DNA from: an uncultured Mediterranea sp.
GTDB taxonomy: Bacteria; Bacteroidota; Bacteroidia; Bacteroidales; Bacteroidaceae
Assembly (NCBI GenBank): GCA_946056155.1
Contig: CAMGIP010000002.1
Location: 1 to 55,770, forward strand
Length of the DNA stretch: 55,770 bases
Reading direction: 5' to 3'
Shown here: positions 5,916 through 53,241 of the stretch, one piece after another
Layout: each line of letters opens with the position of its first letter
Numbering within the stretch: position 1 is the stretch's first letter
The notes under the pieces: model-generated
Told to the model about the DNA's origin: nothing
Databases searched by the model: none
Seen by the model: only the letters and a program-made list of their open reading frames with translations
Position numbers and translations under genes: made by a program

Positions 5916-6475
5916 TTAGTAGGTACAGTTTCTATATTCTGCTTTGACAATCTTCAGGTCGCTCTTCCAGGGATAGCTGGCTGTCCGATACTCATGCTCA
6001 GTCAGCGTAATCTCGTTGGGGTCATCGGCGAGGGAGAACTTGCGCACCTCCTTGTCGATGGCTTGGAAAATCAGCCGGTAGGAGCCGGGTGCAAGGTCTA
6101 TGGGGTATTCCAAGTCCTTCTGGTCGCTGATGAGTTCATGCATTGTCGCCCGGCTTCTGCCAGCGGTCGTGCAAGGCACGGCGGTCCTGGTTGTAGCGGA
6201 TGGAGGAGTCTGTGATGTTCTCTACCTTGTTCAGGAGCGTGTTCTGCACCAGTTGGCCGCCCCAACGGTAGGCAAAGTTGATGTTGAAAGAGAAGCTCTT
6301 GTAACGCAGAACGGAGCTGATATTGCCCTGTACATCTGGAGTGGTATCACCGCATACCACCTCTTCTGATGAATTCCATTCGTAGGTGTAGCTTCCGTCC
6401 TTAGCTCCTTTATAAATGGTTGTAAACAATGGATTGTCTGCACTTTCTGCAGTTGCTTCTTGCAGGTCTGAATAA
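5916..6475 (-). pseudogene. SusC/RagA C-terminal-region remnant joined out of frame to the C-terminus of an unrelated protein
   Basis: YSDLQEATAESADNPLFTTIYKGAKDGS...RRALHDRWQKPGDNA then TGA; second frame MHELISDQKDLEYPIDLAPGSYRLIF...KIVKAEYRNCTY*. Confidence 0.65.
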
Positions 6476-6482
6476 ATAGACC

Positions 6483-6490
6483 TATTTTTG
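6483..6490 (+). promoter_or_regulatory. Bacteroidetes-type -7 box for the jet operon
   Basis: TATTTTTG matching TAnnTTTG, immediately upstream of ATG 6502/6517. Confidence 0.6.
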
Positions 6491-6501
6491 CACGAAAACT
6501 A

Positions 6502-7716
6502 ATGAAAAGATACACTATGGATGCCATAACCCATCTCCGCTCCATCGAAGAGCTGGTGAAGATGCTCGACCGGGAGAAGCTGCTCTTCAAGGATATGTTC
6601 GAGCGCAGGAAATCGCTCTCCTACCGCATGGATTATGCCTTGGAAATCGTGGACTATAAGCATGAACGCATACAGTATCTCATCGACCACGGTGTAATCC
6701 ACGAGAATGGCGACTTCTTGGAGATGGAGGAGGTCTATGTGGAGTTCTTTGAGGATGTGCTCGACATGAACGAGGAGATCAGCGTCACCAGCGTGAAGGA
6801 GTATATCGATGCAATCAAAGAGAATATCACCTACTATCTGGAAGAAAACAACGAAACGCGCAAACAGCAGTACCAAGGCAATGTGCGCAAGATTCTCCGA
6901 AAAATAGGACTACGCACCCTCAAGAACATCATCGACCTGAAACGCAATGTAGATACGGCCTACAAGCAGGAACCCAACTACAAAATCAAGAAGGCGAGAC
7001 TGAACAACCTCGACGACAAGCGCAAGAGAATCAAGACCCTCATCGTGGAGTGCGAGAAGATGATGGAGAGAGAGATGCTGTTCTTCCGCCTCTCTGCCGA
7101 CCCCGACATGCAGCGCACTTGCCAGGATGTGCGTAACGACTTTACCGAGGCCGACCATAATCTGATAGAGATTGAACGGCAGATTATCGACTATATCAAC
7201 CAGATAGAGCAACAGAGTCTGCTACTCAAGAAAATACGCAAACTCAAATACCTCAAGGACCAGCTGACCTGGCGCGAGGAGAGCAGTGTGGCCAGAATCT
7301 TGGAAGAGAGAAATCCGCTCTGGATGGAGAAGCGGCCCTACAACCGTTTCCTCCTCTCCATCAACATGCTCAGGAGCAGTGACGAGGCGCATGAACTTAT
7401 ACGCAAGATAGCGCAGAGCAACAATATCAGACAACTGTCGCGAACCAATGCCGACCCCTTGGATGAGGCGTTTCTTTCGGAGGATGTGGTCGAGGAGCAC
7501 GGGGTCAATATCACCGAGATGTGGAACGCCTTCAAGGCGCAGGGCAGCCACCTCTTTACCTTTATCCGGAATTACCCCTATCGGGAGGCACGCACCACGG
7601 GACAGCATGTCATCCTCTACTGCCAGATGGCCACGCAGCACAGCGACGAACTGCGCTTTACCGATGAATATGAAACGTTTGACAACATAGAATATGCCTT
7701 GATATATGCGAAGTAA
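6502..7716 (+). CDS. jetA: Wadjet JetA-like (MksF/kleisin-type) protein
   Basis: First gene of a four-gene overlapping operon with JetB-, JetC- and JetD-like products; long helical segments; size and position match JetA. Confidence 0.75.
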   Translation: MKRYTMDAITHLRSIEELVKMLDREKLLFKDMFERRKSLSYRMDYALEIVDYKHERIQYLIDHGVIHENGDFLEMEEVYVEFFEDVLDMNEEISVTSVKEYIDAIKENITYYLEENNETRKQQYQGNVRKILRKIGLRTLKNIIDLKRNVDTAYKQEPNYKIKKARLNNLDDKRKRIKTLIVECEKMMEREMLFFRLSADPDMQRTCQDVRNDFTEADHNLIEIERQIIDYINQIEQQSLLLKKIRKLKYLKDQLTWREESSVARILEERNPLWMEKRPYNRFLLSINMLRSSDEAHELIRKIAQSNNIRQLSRTNADPLDEAFLSEDVVEEHGVNITEMWNAFKAQGSHLFTFIRNYPYREARTTGQHVILYCQMATQHSDELRFTDEYETFDNIEYALIYAK

Positions 7717-8260
7717 TACACAGAAAATATTTGAACGGCTGAGCCGAGGGACCTTTCTCTCGGTGGATTCCACCGACATCGAGCAGAAGCATCTCTACGA
7801 TGATGTGGAGGAAAACTATGCCGACTACGAGTCCTACTTCCGGGAACTAGGGCTGCAGTTAGAGGGGGGCGATGGCTACTTCTATTTCGCCCGCCAGCGT
7901 GAGGCCAAGCTCACCATTGAGCAGAAACTCCAGACCTTTGCCGTCTGGGTGGATATTCTCGACTTCCTCAAGACCTACGACATAGCCTTCTCCGCCGGAT
8001 TCCAGTTTCGTGTCGCCCATATCCTGGAACGCATCAACATCGATGTGGAACTGCGCGACAAGGCACGCAAGCTTTTCCGTAAGCAGAAGACCAACCAGGA
8101 GGTGATGGACAAGCTCATCGCCGAACTTACCGGTATCGGCTTTGCCGAAGTTGTCAACGAACAGGATGGCACCTACAAGGTGACCGCTGCCTTCCGCTAT
8201 GCCGAGGAGCTGGTGAATCTGATAACCCTATATAATGAAGAAGAAATGCCGGAATTATGA
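7706..8260 (+). CDS. jetB: Wadjet JetB-like (MksE/DUF4194-type) protein
   Basis: 184 aa, tandem winged-helix-like composition, overlaps flanking ORFs in jet-type order. Confidence 0.75.
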   Translation: MRSNTQKIFERLSRGTFLSVDSTDIEQKHLYDDVEENYADYESYFRELGLQLEGGDGYFYFARQREAKLTIEQKLQTFAVWVDILDFLKTYDIAFSAGFQFRVAHILERINIDVELRDKARKLFRKQKTNQEVMDKLIAELTGIGFAEVVNEQDGTYKVTAAFRYAEELVNLITLYNEEEMPEL

Positions 8261-11200
8261 GATACCTGAATAAGATAGTCTTTATCAACAGTGCCAATAT
8301 ACCCTATGCGGAGGTAATGCTAGACGGCAACGTGCATTTTTCTGGAACGCAGGGAGTGGGCAAGAGTACGGTGCTTAGGGCACTGCTCTTTTTCTACAAT
8401 GCCGACAAGATGAAGTTGGGCATACAGCCAGGACAGAAGTCGTTCGAGGAGTTCTACTTACGTTATGCCAACTCCTATATAGTGTATGAGGTGAAGACCG
8501 GTCACAGTGCCTACTCCATCCTGGTGGCACGCAGCCAGGGTAGGGCGGTCTTTTGGTTTATCGATGCCCCCTACCGCAAGGAGTGGCTCGTGGATGAGGA
8601 GGGACATGTGGATAGCGATTGGATACATATCCGCGGACGCATCGACAGCGGGGTGGAGGTAAGCCCGAAGATTGACACCTATGAGCTCTATCGAAACATC
8701 ATCTTCGGCAATACCCGCGACAGCCGTCACCGCTACGACAAGTATGCCCTTGTTGAGAGTTCCCGCTATCAGAACATCCCCCGCTCTATACAGAACGTCT
8801 TCCTCAACAGCAAGCTCGATGCCGACTTTGTGAAGAATACCATCATACAGTCGATGACCGACTCGGAGGAGTGCATCAAGCTGGCTCCCTACCGCAGCAA
8901 TGTGGATGAGTTCGAGCAGAAGTACAACGACATCGACTGCTGGTACCGCAAGGATGCCAATGGAGAGGTGGTGGTGAGAACCAAGGCTCAGAAGGTGATC
9001 GATACCTACCGCCTTCTGCTGGCCACGGAGGGGACGATGACACAAACCTGGCGCAAGCTGAACTTTGCAGTGGCTTATGCGCGAGGACAGATGCCTGTCA
9101 TTGAGGACGATATCAATAGCCTGCTGGCACAGCGGACCAAAATCAGGGAGAAGTTGGAGAGTGCGCAGGCCGAGTTCCAAAAGGAGCATGATGCGCTGAT
9201 GAAGAAAATCAGCACCTGTGATGTAAGGTTGGGGGATATACGTCAGAAGAGGAAAGAGTATGACCAGATGGATATCCGGGCGATGCTGGAGTTGGATGGT
9301 CAGGAGCCCCAATGGAAGGCGGAAAGGGCGCAGAAGGAGCAGCTGCTCGATACGCTTCAACGGCAGTTCCAGAGCGTAACCGACAAGTACAAGGCACTCT
9401 ATGAGGCATTGGACAGCGAATGGAAAGCGTTCCAGCTCGGACAGACGGAGGAGTTGCAGCGGCTGCGCAACGACATCCAGGACAGAAAGGAGAGGGCTCT
9501 GCTGCAACGTGACAAGAACCGACAGAGCATAGAGCTGGGTTACACAAAGTTCGTGGAGGAGTCGGACGGACGGTGGAAGATGTTGCAGGAGGAGCTGAAC
9601 CGGACAGACAAACGGTTAGCCGAACTGACCCATTGGCATCCCATGGCGAAGGAGATGGAGGCGTGCCGCGAGGAGATAAGGGGAATGCAGGCCCAACAGG
9701 TGGAGCTGCAGAGCCAGATAGTCATCAAAGGTAAGGACCTGGAGGCTTTGCGCAACAAGGGATTGAAGGAGCGGGAAGAGATAGAGCGGAAGTTTGCTCA
9801 GGAGATGGAATCGGTGCAGACGCAACTGGCTCAGACTGAAGATTGTCTGAAGGATACGGAGGAGATGCTGGCCCGTTGGAAGGGGTCACTCTACGAATGG
9901 CTCACCGAGAACAAACCGGGCTGGGAGGAGAATATCGGCAAGGTGGTGGACGAACGCGATGTACTCTATGCCCAGGGGTTGAATCCCCGATGCTGTGGCG
10001 AGGAGACTTCGCTCTTTGGCATCTCGCTCGACCTGGAGGCGATACCTACCCATCACCGTACTCCGGATGACTACCGCCGGGAACAGAAGGAGATGCAGAA
10101 GAGGCTGGAGGAGCTCAAACGGCAGAGAGCCGAACTGCAGACACAACGTCAACAGCAGCTGGAGAGCAGCAGCCGGTCGTACAAGAGCAAGATACGCGAC
10201 CTTGAAGTGGAGAAGAGTGCCCTGCGCATGGATTTAGACCAGATGCCGCTGAGAATCAAGGATGCCGAAACCAAATTGCGCTCGCTCTCGCAACAGGAGG
10301 AGGGGATGATTGCTGCGGAGAGGGAGAAACGGCAGGCAGCCTACAACGAGGCGTTGCTCAACCTGAACAAGGAGGATGAGAGCCGACGGCAGCGGAGAGC
10401 CAAGCGCGACAAGGAGCTGAAGGCGGCGGAGAGTGAATATCGTGCTGTCATACAGGAGCTACAGCGCCAGTTTGATGAGTTCAAGCAGACACAGGAGGCC
10501 GAGGCCGGCAAACGGAAATCGGCCATGGACGAACGGCGCCAACAGTTGCAGAAGCAGGAACGGGATGAATTGGTCGGGAAGGGAGCCGACACGCAGGCTA
10601 TCGAGCACTGCCGGAAGGAAATAGATCATGCACAGAAGCTGCTCAACCGTATCGAGGAGCAGAAGAGGCATGTGTATGCCTACCGCAAGGATGAGGAGGA
10701 ACTCTTCTCGCACGAGAGTGAATATCGGGAGGAGAAGCGCCGGTTGGAGGAGATGGACAGTCAGGCCTGCCAGCGCAAAGAGGACCGCTGCAAACGGTAT
10801 GAGGGTGAGCTGGGCGAAACTTCGTCCCTGCTGAAGAGGAAACAGGAAGAGCAGGAGAAGATGAAGGAGGGGCTGACCCAATACGAGCAGCTCTGCCGGG
10901 TGGAGAACACCATTCCAGAATCTTTCCTTCAGGATGATACCCAGCAGACCACCTTGCAGGGTTGTGGAGAGCTGGTAAATGAGATGCGTGGGATCATCAA
11001 CCGGAAACGGCTGAAGCAGGAGGAACTCAAACGGGCTACCAACTCGTTCAACTCCCATTTCGGTGCCAACAACACCTTCCATTTCACCACTCCCCAGTAT
11101 GATGAGGAGTATCGTGACTTTGCACAACACCTGCTTGACTTCATTGAGGATGACCGCATCGAGGAGTATCGCAAGCGGGTGAGCGAGCATTACCACACCA

Positions 11201-11916
11201 TTCTCAACAGCATATCAAGAGAGGTGGGACAGCTGATGAACCACTCGGCGGAAATCAAGGCCGTCATCAATGAGGTGAACCGCGACTTCAAGGAGCGGAA
11301 CTTTGCCGGAGTCATACGCAGCATCGAACTGCGAGCCGAGGAGTCGTCAGACCGGCTGGTCCTCCTCCTCCGTAACATACGCGACTTTACCGAGGAGAAT
11401 ATGATGAACATCGGTGAGGTGAACCTCTTCTCGGATGCCGATCACGGCAAGGTGAACGACAAGGTGGTGGAGTATCTCAAGCATTTCATGAAGCAGCTGC
11501 AGAAGGAGCCCGGACGCACCGAACTCACCCTCTCCGACACCTTCCGCCTGCAGTTCCGCATCCAGGAGAACGACAACAATACGGGATGGGTGGAGCGTAT
11601 CAGCAATGTGGGTTCCGACGGTACCGACATCTTAGTCAAGGCGATGGTCAACATCATGCTCATCAACGTCTTCAAGACCAAGGCTTCTCGCAAGAACGGT
11701 GACTTCATCATCCATTGCATGATGGATGAGATTGGCAAGCTCCATCCGAGTAACGTGAGCGGCATCCTGCAGTTTGCCAATGTGCGCAACATCTACCTCA
11801 TCAATAGCTCACCCATGGGCTACAATGCGGACATCTACCGGTATAACTATCTGCTGACCAAGGACAGCAAGTCACAGACACACGTGAGGCGTTTGGTGAC
11901 TATCAACCGGAACTGA
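8257..11916 (+). CDS. jetC: Wadjet JetC SMC-like ATPase (MksB-type)
   Basis: HFSGTQGVGKSTVLRALLFFYNADK Walker A, long coiled coil, hinge around NPRCCGEETSLFGISLDL, C-terminal NVGSDGTDILVKAMVNIMLI signature and IIHCMMDEIGKLHP Walker B. Confidence 0.9.
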   Translation: MRYLNKIVFINSANIPYAEVMLDGNVHFSGTQGVGKSTVLRALLFFYNADKMKLGIQPGQKSFEEFYLRYANSYIVYEVKTGHSAYSILVARSQGRAVFWFIDAPYRKEWLVDEEGHVDSDWIHIRGRIDSGVEVSPKIDTYELYRNIIFGNTRDSRHRYDKYALVESSRYQNIPRSIQNVFLNSKLDADFVKNTIIQSMTDSEECIKLAPYRSNVDEFEQKYNDIDCWYRKDANGEVVVRTKAQKVIDTYRLLLATEGTMTQTWRKLNFAVAYARGQMPVIEDDINSLLAQRTKIREKLESAQAEFQKEHDALMKKISTCDVRLGDIRQKRKEYDQMDIRAMLELDGQEPQWKAERAQKEQLLDTLQRQFQSVTDKYKALYEALDSEWKAFQLGQTEELQRLRNDIQDRKERALLQRDKNRQSIELGYTKFVEESDGRWKMLQEELNRTDKRLAELTHWHPMAKEMEACREEIRGMQAQQVELQSQIVIKGKDLEALRNKGLKEREEIERKFAQEMESVQTQLAQTEDCLKDTEEMLARWKGSLYEWLTENKPGWEENIGKVVDERDVLYAQGLNPRCCGEETSLFGISLDLEAIPTHHRTPDDYRREQKEMQKRLEELKRQRAELQTQRQQQLESSSRSYKSKIRDLEVEKSALRMDLDQMPLRIKDAETKLRSLSQQEEGMIAAEREKRQAAYNEALLNLNKEDESRRQRRAKRDKELKAAESEYRAVIQELQRQFDEFKQTQEAEAGKRKSAMDERRQQLQKQERDELVGKGADTQAIEHCRKEIDHAQKLLNRIEEQKRHVYAYRKDEEELFSHESEYREEKRRLEEMDSQACQRKEDRCKRYEGELGETSSLLKRKQEEQEKMKEGLTQYEQLCRVENTIPESFLQDDTQQTTLQGCGELVNEMRGIINRKRLKQEELKRATNSFNSHFGANNTFHFTTPQYDEEYRDFAQHLLDFIEDDRIEEYRKRVSEHYHTILNSISREVGQLMNHSAEIKAVINEVNRDFKERNFAGVIRSIELRAEESSDRLVLLLRNIRDFTEENMMNIGEVNLFSDADHGKVNDKVVEYLKHFMKQLQKEPGRTELTLSDTFRLQFRIQENDNNTGWVERISNVGSDGTDILVKAMVNIMLINVFKTKASRKNGDFIIHCMMDEIGKLHPSNVSGILQFANVRNIYLINSSPMGYNADIYRYNYLLTKDSKSQTHVRRLVTINRN

Positions 11917-12974
11917 TGGCACTCTCTGCTACGCAGATAAGCCACCTCCAGCGACTCCTTATGGGCGAATCGGTGGCAGCCAGCCTGATGTTGAAGGGTG
12001 TGGCCGAAGAGTTGTGCAAGGAGGAACTGCTCACAGTGCGCACCCGGGGGTGCCGACGTAGCTATTCGGCAGTCAATGTGACGGCTTTACGCAACTATCT
12101 CTATACTCGCTACCCGGAGTTGCGTATGGCCGATGAGGCTTCCAGAGCTGCTGAGCCGGAGGGCAGGTCTCTTCCGCACAGGGTTTTAAATCCGGGAATG
12201 ACCCCAAATCCTGCAATAACCTCAGATCTGGTGATGAACTCAAATAATGGGTCCAACCAAGAGGTAGTCCCAAACGGGGAGATGGCATTTCATGAGGAGA
12301 GTGTCTCAGATTCGGGGATGACGTCTGATTGGAAGTTGAATCCGAAAGCAGAGCAGAGTCAGGATATTACCCGCGCCCGTCAGGCAGCTGCCACGGGTGA
12401 TTCCAAAATCTATGCCAAGCGTTCTTGTCCTGGTTTTCCGGTCAACAGCTATCAGCCTATCGCTTGTCGTCTGCATGGGGAGGAGCTGGTGGTTTATCCG
12501 CAGGAGGGCACCTTTCTCTTCATCGCTGATTGGTCCTCCTTCTGCATTCCAGCCGAAGTCATTGTGGTGGGCATAGAGAATATGGAGAGCTTCAGGATGG
12601 TGCGTGCGGAGCAGCGGCTCTTTGAGTCGATTCTTGGTCAGTCCCCCTTGCTTTTTGTCTCCCGTTACCCCCAATCCACCGATCTCCGTTTTTGGTTGCA
12701 GGGTATCAGCAATCGCTATGTCCATTTCGGGGACTTTGATCTGGCTGGTATCCATATATTTCTCACGGAGTTCTATCCCTACCTCGGTGAGCGAAGCTCA
12801 TTCCTCATTCCGCATGACTTGGAGCAACGTCTGCAACAGGGCTCCTTGGAGCGGTACAACGACCAATACCAACGGTTCTCGTCGCTGAGATCTGACCATC
12901 CCGAATTCCAACGGCTTATTGAACTTATCCATCGCTACCGGAGGGGTTACGACCAGGAGGGCTACATCGGCTGA
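11916..12974 (+). CDS. jetD: Wadjet JetD-like Toprim (TopoVI/Spo11-type) protein
   Basis: IVVGIENMESF and VHFGDFDLAGIHI Toprim acidic motifs; TGATG overlap with jetC. Confidence 0.85.
   Translation: MALSATQISHLQRLLMGESVAASLMLKGVAEELCKEELLTVRTRGCRRSYSAVNVTALRNYLYTRYPELRMADEASRAAEPEGRSLPHRVLNPGMTPNPAITSDLVMNSNNGSNQEVVPNGEMAFHEESVSDSGMTSDWKLNPKAEQSQDITRARQAAATGDSKIYAKRSCPGFPVNSYQPIACRLHGEELVVYPQEGTFLFIADWSSFCIPAEVIVVGIENMESFRMVRAEQRLFESILGQSPLLFVSRYPQSTDLRFWLQGISNRYVHFGDFDLAGIHIFLTEFYPYLGERSSFLIPHDLEQRLQQGSLERYNDQYQRFSSLRSDHPEFQRLIELIHRYRRGYDQEGYIG
12189..12350 (+). repeat. Degenerate 18-bp tandem repeat inside jetD linker
   Basis: AATCCGGGAATGACCCCA / AATCCTGCAATAACCTCA / GATCTGGTGATGAACTCA / ... 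in frame, peptide period 6 aa. Confidence 0.6.
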
Positions 12975-13040: not shown

Positions 13041-13150
13041 AATTTCCTCAGTTGAGTTGCTGAATTTCTCCAGTTAGGGCGGAAAATTTCTCTAGTTAGG
13101 AAAAAAAATCTCGCTAACTAGGAAAAAATATTTTCCTAACTGGGATTTTT
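13041..13150. repeat. 22-bp tandem repeat array (family A), locus 1, 5 units
   Basis: Five 22-bp units with CAGTTGAG/CCAGTTAGG/CTAGTTAGG/CTAACTAGG/CTAACTGGG cores. Confidence 0.85.
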
Positions 13151-37592: not shown

Positions 37593-37710
37593 GAAACTCA
37601 GAGGGTGGAAAGATTTGAGTAGCTTGCAACCACCGAAAAAAATGCTAAAACACATTTCCTCTTCTCAAAGAGCAGGTGTTTCAACTTGCATCTCTTTCCC
37701 ACCAAGTTTC
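37593..37710 (+). ncRNA. Probable SAM riboswitch (SAM-I clan-like) in metK leader
   Basis: P1 GAAACT/AGTTTC closing stem; GAGGGTGGAAAGATTTG...GCAACCACC and AATGCTAAAAC resemble S-box conserved blocks; located before metK. Confidence 0.65.
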
Positions 37711-53131: not shown

Positions 53132-53241
53132 AATTTCCTAGTTAGGGAAATTTTTTTCCTAACTAGCGCGTAAAATCTCTCTAACTAGGAAAATGTATGT
53201 ACTCTATCTGGGGAATTTTCACAACCCAACTGAGGCGTTTC
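53132..53241. repeat. 22-bp tandem repeat array (family A), locus 2, 5 units
   Basis: AATTTCCTAGTTAGGGAAATTT / TTTTCCTAACTAGCGCGTAAAA / TCTCTCTAACTAGGAAAATGTA / TGTACTCTATCTGGGGAATTTT / CACAACCCAACTGAGGCGTTTC. Confidence 0.82.

What the first reader, a model, noticed from the sequence alone, without database searches (positions are those of the whole stretch)
6502..12974. Complete four-gene Wadjet/JetABCD (MksFEBG-like) operon between a decayed SusC locus and lpdA
Four overlapping ORFs (11-bp overlap, ATGA, TGATG) encode a kleisin-like protein, a small MksE-like protein, a 1219-aa SMC-like ATPase and a Toprim protein. Seen directly: Walker A GVGKST, Walker B IIHCMMDEIGK, Toprim GIEN...GDFDLAG. 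From established knowledge, this order matches Wadjet plasmid-restriction systems. JetA/JetB are assigned from context and may be a divergent Bacteroidales subtype; I cannot assign type I/II/III.
Basis: partly seen in the sequence, partly recalled or inferred. Interest (0 to 1): 0.72.

Follow-up and report, generated by a model that had tools for sequence, protein, structure and literature searches.

The report
Divergent Wadjet-like plasmid-cutting SMC operon
A gut Bacteroides-relative carries a four-gene operon for a ring-shaped DNA motor coupled to a DNA-cutting enzyme, most likely used to destroy invading circular DNA such as plasmids; it is a variant of a known defence machine (Wadjet/MksBEFG) that the standard defence catalogue I could run does not recognise, and it has spread widely by gene transfer among Bacteroidales.

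Summary
Four overlapping + strand genes at 6502-12974 encode a kleisin-like protein, an MksE, a 1219-aa SMC ATPase and a winged-helix + Toprim protein. JetB matches Pfam MksE (3e-39), JetC matches DUF3584 along its whole length (3e-58), JetD matches DUF7281 (9e-7). JetA has no family match, but its predicted fold best matches MukF and the solved E. coli JetA. JetD's best folds are the topoisomerase VI A subunit and Spo11. Catalytic residues are invariant in all relatives aligned. The four-gene order recurs in every one of 80 relatives whose contig reaches far enough. It is accessory (11 of 61 genomes) and spreads horizontally: JetC is closest (65%) to genomes whose MetK is only 61-67% identical, yet 40% to Bacteroides whose MetK is 90-91% identical. 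PADLOC's Wadjet I/II/III profiles do not cover it. Best reading: an unclassified MksBEFG/Wadjet branch that extrudes and cuts circular DNA; restriction itself is inferred, not shown. Corrections: jetA probably starts at 6517, and this JetD carries a unique ~65-aa disordered linker of unknown effect.

The parts
6483..6490 (+). Possible promoter -7 box TATTTTTG (Bacteroides consensus TAnnTTTG), with TTG 20 bp upstream (6460-6462)
   Evidence: Read directly from the sequence; consensus from general knowledge; not tested statistically
6502..7716 (+). jetA/mksF-like kleisin (404 aa; more likely start 6517, 399 aa)
   Evidence: start from alignment; AlphaFold model: N-terminal winged helix, long helical middle, disordered linker, C-terminal winged helix; best PDB folds MukF 9gm7_C and JetA 8q72_E
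7706..8260 (+). jetB/mksE (KITE subunit, 184 aa)
   Evidence: Pfam MksE PF21980, E 3.4e-39
8257..11916 (+). jetC/mksB SMC ATPase (1219 aa): heads at both ends, coiled coils, conserved hinge-like centre about residues 544-610
   Evidence: Pfam DUF3584 PF12128, E 3.2e-58 over residues 18-1186; invariant Walker A, S1120/G1122 and D1157/E1158
11916..12974 (+). jetD/mksG-like winged helix + Toprim nuclease (352 aa)
   Evidence: Pfam DUF7281 PF23947, E 8.6e-7; fold match to Topo VI A 9o8p_A and Spo11 8urq_A; E221, N222, E224, D273, D275 invariant in 47 sequences
12159..12359 (+). Unique extra ~65-aa linker inside jetD, between the winged-helix and Toprim domains
   Evidence: Alignments A2/A6; pLDDT <50 over residues 84-148
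5916..6429 (-). Remnant of a SusC-type gene and an adjoining gene at the left border (not part of the system)
   Evidence: TIGR04056 E 1.1e-7; PKD_2 E 0.003
13070..13143 (.). Species-specific dispersed repeat (CTAACTRG, 22-nt period) between jetD and lpdA (not part of the system)

Best explanation
This is a divergent MksBEFG/Wadjet-type system. JetC dimers with the JetA kleisin and JetB (KITE) form an ATP-driven SMC ring that extrudes DNA loops. On a small closed circle the motor units run out of DNA, stall and hand bent DNA to the JetD Toprim dimer, which makes a double-strand cut and destroys plasmids or circular element intermediates, while the chromosome is spared by its size. Shown here: gene order, subunit identities, intact catalytic residues, patchy distribution and horizontal spread. 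Inferred from characterised relatives: loop extrusion, size sensing, cutting and plasmid restriction. It forms a Bacteroidota-centred branch outside PADLOC's types I-III.
For: Family matches MksE, DUF3584 and DUF7281. JetA fold matches MukF and JetA of a solved JetABCD core. JetD fold matches Topo VI A and Spo11, the fold reported for MksG (PMC10123090). Catalytic residues invariant. Four-gene order conserved in 80 relatives wherever the contig allows. Patchy: 11/61 genomes, 21/295 of the order. Horizontal transfer: JetC versus MetK conflict and near-identical JetC in Bacteroides muris, Parabacteroides and a Prevotellaceae MAG. The lpdA-dacB neighbourhood is conserved in the genus, what lies upstream of lpdA varies, and none of the 11 genomes examined has the operon there. 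Relatives' JetD reach PADLOC JetD1 at E 7.5e-7.
Against: No PADLOC JetA, JetB or type-specific profile set matched. The JetA fold match is modest (E 8e-4, TM about 0.2, model pLDDT 72), and JetD's top folds were Top6A and Spo11, not a solved JetD. The unique linker might impair this JetD. Some relatives keep A, B and C but lack D. No activity was tested.
Confidence: 0.8

Rival explanations
1. A chromosome-organising MksBEF condensin, with the Toprim protein as an auxiliary or decatenating factor rather than a defence nuclease.
For: No canonical Smc over the cut-off in any of 31 Bacteroidales genomes including this one; a Hi-C paper found no known condensin in Bacteroides caecimuris (PMC10197239); some relatives lack jetD (L141, L165, L168, L169, L170).
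Against: Present in only 11 of 61 genomes and horizontally spread, so it cannot be a general condensin; jetD overlaps jetC and is nearly always kept in this branch; the D-less cases need at least 4 changes on the tree, which looks like repeated loss rather than one housekeeping clade.
Confidence: 0.1
2. An SMC-nuclease aimed mainly at phage DNA or at circular intermediates of conjugative elements rather than at small plasmids.
For: Type II/III Wadjets are mechanistically uncharacterised and may see other substrates (PMC10586767); the Bacteroidales mobilome is rich in integrative conjugative elements (general knowledge).
Against: No direct evidence; the characterised relatives act on circular plasmids.
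Confidence: 0.25
3. The copy in this genome is inactive or altered: the extra ~65-aa linker in JetD uncouples DNA handling from cutting, or reflects an assembly error in the MAG.
For: Linker unique among 47 aligned JetD, predicted disordered; decayed copies exist (G009, truncated A, C and D with no B); the genome is a fragmented MAG.
Against: The insert is in frame, all catalytic residues are intact, it lies in a naturally variable linker, and all four genes are open.
Confidence: 0.15

Closest known systems
MksBEFG of Corynebacterium glutamicum / Wadjet type I JetABCD (P. aeruginosa PA14, E. coli GF4-3)
   Same: Four genes; MukB-like SMC, MksE KITE, kleisin and Toprim nuclease with conserved acidic residues; accessory distribution
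   Different: Not recognised by PADLOC type I models except weak Walker-region (JetC1) and JetD1 matches; JetD shows no match to the Pfam JetD domains and falls in DUF7281 instead; JetC belongs to the DUF3584 family
DUF3584-MksE-DUF7281 systems of Pseudomonadota (Aromatoleum plasmid L162; Enterobacter Tn7-like cargo L163)
   Same: Same three detectable protein families; JetC profile comparison E 1.6e-29
   Different: Gene order SMC, MksE, kleisin position, Toprim instead of kleisin, MksE, SMC, Toprim; third protein not recognisably similar to our kleisin by sequence
MukBEF
   Same: Kleisin fold match to MukF, MksE/KITE, SMC
   Different: Here with an associated nuclease, and horizontally mobile rather than housekeeping
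Lamassu (LmuB)
   Same: Coiled-coil SMC-like ATPase; weak coiled-coil match to LmuB (E 0.0013)
   Different: No LmuA effector; KITE and kleisin genes present; match limited to the coiled coil

Membership tests
Wadjet / MksBEFG (broad sense) | SMC ATPase of the MukB/MksB type with intact ATPase motifs | tested here: met
   PF12128 E 3e-58 full length; Walker A/B and signature serine invariant
Wadjet / MksBEFG (broad sense) | MukE/MksE-type KITE subunit | tested here: met
   PF21980 MksE E 3.4e-39
Wadjet / MksBEFG (broad sense) | MukF-type kleisin | tested here: met
   Predicted fold; best PDB hits MukF 9gm7_C, JetA 8q72_E, MukF 7nz2/3euh/1t98. Modest scores; no sequence match
Wadjet / MksBEFG (broad sense) | Toprim nuclease (JetD/MksG) with E and DxD metal-binding residues | tested here: met
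   DUF7281 E 9e-7; Topo VI A / Spo11 fold; E221 and D273/D275 invariant
Wadjet / MksBEFG (broad sense) | Four genes in one operon, conserved together | tested here: met
   Overlapping genes; conserved in relatives
Wadjet / MksBEFG (broad sense) | Restricts circular plasmids by cleavage | not testable with these tools
   Needs experiment
Wadjet type I, II or III as defined by PADLOC 2.0.0 | Matches to type-specific JetA-D profiles | tested here: not met
   JetA and JetB none; JetC1 E 0.0036 (Walker A region only); JetD1 E 0.0027 for this protein, up to 7.5e-7 in relatives
Canonical Smc-ScpAB condensin | Full-length match to SMC_prok_B TIGR02168 | tested here: not met
   20.8 bits against a cut-off of 567, coiled coil only
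MksBEF housekeeping condensin | Near-universal presence within the lineage | tested here: not met
   11 of 61 genomes
Lamassu | LmuA effector beside LmuB | tested here: not met
   No LmuA match among the four proteins; families and folds are kleisin, MksE, Toprim

The most novel reading that the evidence does not exclude
A separate, Bacteroidales-wide class of SMC nuclease (a 'fourth' Wadjet type with a DUF7281 Toprim effector) with its own substrate rule, for example recognition of circular conjugative-element intermediates, that has been overlooked by current defence catalogues.
Probability: 0.35. Interest if true: 0.6.

Novelty: new variant of a known kind. Interest (0 to 1): 0.42.

Why it matters
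412 loci encoding a relative of this SMC turned up in one scan of representative genomes, the closest 80 almost all in gut and rumen Bacteroidales, while the PADLOC copy I could run does not call the operon tested here and a search of open papers found no report of Wadjet in Bacteroidales. If active, it would be a hidden barrier to plasmid transfer and genetic manipulation in gut Bacteroidales and would enlarge the known diversity of DNA-measuring nucleases.

Tried and rejected
Sequence search of PDB chains with single proteins and profiles gave no meaningful relatives: the hits were coiled-coil or chance matches, so only fold comparison placed JetA and JetD. The Pfam SIR2 match of JetA (E 0.009, below cut-off) was rejected as chance. 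'Plasmid' records carrying relatives (H1-H3) were not taken as proof of plasmid carriage: H3 holds chromosomal genes such as gcvT and glutamine synthetase and looks like a circularised chromosome piece. No relative was found in phage records. The idea that D-less relatives form one housekeeping condensin clade was tested on a JetC tree and not supported (at least 4 changes), though long branches make the deep part unsure. No convincing attachment-site repeats flanking the operon were found. The PADLOC scan of 99 neighbouring ORFs gave some candidate-defence matches (PDC-S01 in 8), but no control set was run, so it is not used as evidence. One call used wrong coordinates and failed.

Full report
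Observation. One search lists the four ORFs at the coordinates given, on the + strand, with the overlaps described (11 bp, ATGA, TGATG). The left border is a broken SusC-type gene (TIGR04056 E 1e-7) plus an adjoining fragment, and the right neighbour is a dihydrolipoamide dehydrogenase-type protein. The jetA start is better placed at ATG 6517, where the aligned relatives begin.

Identity of the subunits. JetB is a Pfam MksE protein (E 3.4e-39), JetC matches DUF3584 (MukB-like) over residues 18-1186 (E 3.2e-58), and JetD matches DUF7281 just over its cut-off (29.1 bits against 27). JetA matches nothing credible by sequence. Its AlphaFold model (mean pLDDT 72) has an N-terminal winged helix, a long helical middle, a disordered linker and a C-terminal winged helix; the best PDB folds are MukF (9gm7_C, E 8e-4), JetA of the E. 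coli JetABCD core (8q72_E) and further MukF entries. The scores are modest, but MukF and JetA chains recur among the top hits although sequence identity is only 8-14%. JetD's model (pLDDT 82) is a winged helix plus Toprim; its best folds are the topoisomerase VI A subunit (9o8p_A, E 5e-4) and Spo11, which is the fold reported for MksG (PMC10123090) and noted for JetD (PMC13040014).

Catalytic state. In nine JetC sequences Walker A (G33-T38), S1120/G1122 and D1157/E1158 are invariant; in 47 JetD sequences E221, N222, E224, D273 and D275 are invariant. All four genes are open. The one oddity is JetD's linker: 80 residues between positions 70 and 150, where the other 46 have 6 to 15. It is predicted to be disordered and is not a tandem repeat. 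Whether it matters is unknown.

Conservation and spread. The one scan of representative genomes found 412 loci encoding a JetC relative. Among the best 80, every locus whose contig extends far enough carries A, B, C and D in this order; three have an extra gene between B and C. The scan kept the closest loci, so this describes the near branch; deeper relatives include some with A, B and C but no D. Presence is patchy: 11 of 61 genomes and 21 of 295 genomes of the order. One congener holds a decayed copy (G009). JetC and organism relations disagree: the closest JetC (65%) lies in UBA1205 and rumen MAGs whose MetK is 61-67% identical to the window's, whereas Bacteroides faecis has 91% MetK but a 40% JetC. 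Elsewhere on the tree, JetC is nearly identical in Bacteroides muris, Parabacteroides and a Prevotellaceae MAG. The lpdA-dacB pair is conserved in the genus, what lies upstream of lpdA varies, and none of the 11 genomes examined has the operon there. Together these point to an accessory, horizontally exchanged module at a variable junction.

Classification. PADLOC 2.0.0 gives only a Walker-A-region match to JetC1 (E 0.0036), a weak JetD1 match (E 0.0027), and nothing for JetA or JetB. Across the JetD family 46 of 47 members match a JetD1 profile weakly, best E 7.5e-7; the JetA family matches no Jet profile. Pseudomonadota plasmids and a Tn7-like element carry a related set with the same three recognisable families, DUF3584, MksE and DUF7281, in a different gene order. 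So the operon belongs to the broad MksBEFG/Wadjet kind, but I do not file it under type I, II or III.

Mechanism. From characterised relatives (PMC10586767, PMC10512200, PMC13040014), the complex should extrude DNA loops with ATP, detect small closed circles and let the Toprim dimer cut bent DNA. For this operon these steps are inferred. A housekeeping condensin role is unlikely given the patchy distribution, although it is notable that no canonical Smc passes the cut-off in 31 Bacteroidales genomes and that Hi-C work found no known condensin in Bacteroides caecimuris (PMC10197239).

Literature. Searches of the held open papers found none with Wadjet together with MksG and Bacteroid- terms, none with Wadjet, Bacteroidales and plasmid, and none naming DUF7281. 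Subscription papers are mostly not covered, so novelty is provisional.

Verdict. It is a new variant of a known kind, of moderate interest.

Noticed in passing
window 13070-13143 and 53138-53188; elsewhere in G000: A dispersed palindromic repeat: CTAACTRG units at a 22-nt period, often in inverted clusters; the pair pattern gives 32 matches in this genome, 0 with the reversed-pattern control, and 1 in 30 relatives together. Looks like a species-specific REP/BIME-like element.
   Followed up: partly
L023:6439-7980, L024:6439-7980, L053:6383-8014: A ~514-544 aa gene sits between jetB and jetC in two distant branches; it reads like an AlbA_2/Schlafen-type protein (my reading; only a weak pAgo profile match for L023, E 9e-9). 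Possible accessory subunit.
   Followed up: partly
L028:4160-5398: JetD-like gene fused in frame to what reads as a NUDIX (MutT-like) domain.
   Followed up: no
L141, L165, L168, L169, L170: Relatives with A, B and C but no D gene within reach; possible nuclease-free MksBEF condensins, scattered on the JetC tree.
   Followed up: partly
G000 and 30 relatives: No canonical Smc (TIGR02168) over the cut-off in any of 31 Bacteroidales genomes; the housekeeping condensin of this group remains unclear.
   Followed up: partly
window 37599-37658 (+): SAM-II riboswitch upstream of metK (63.6 bits, gathering 44).
   Followed up: no
L163: Enterobacter hormaechei IncC plasmid: Tn7-like tns genes followed by a WYL gene and a DUF3584/MksE/DUF7281 system whose SMC gene is split by an IS256 element.
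   Followed up: no
L178 (G009): Decayed copy of the operon: short pieces of A, C and D remain, B lost.
   Followed up: no
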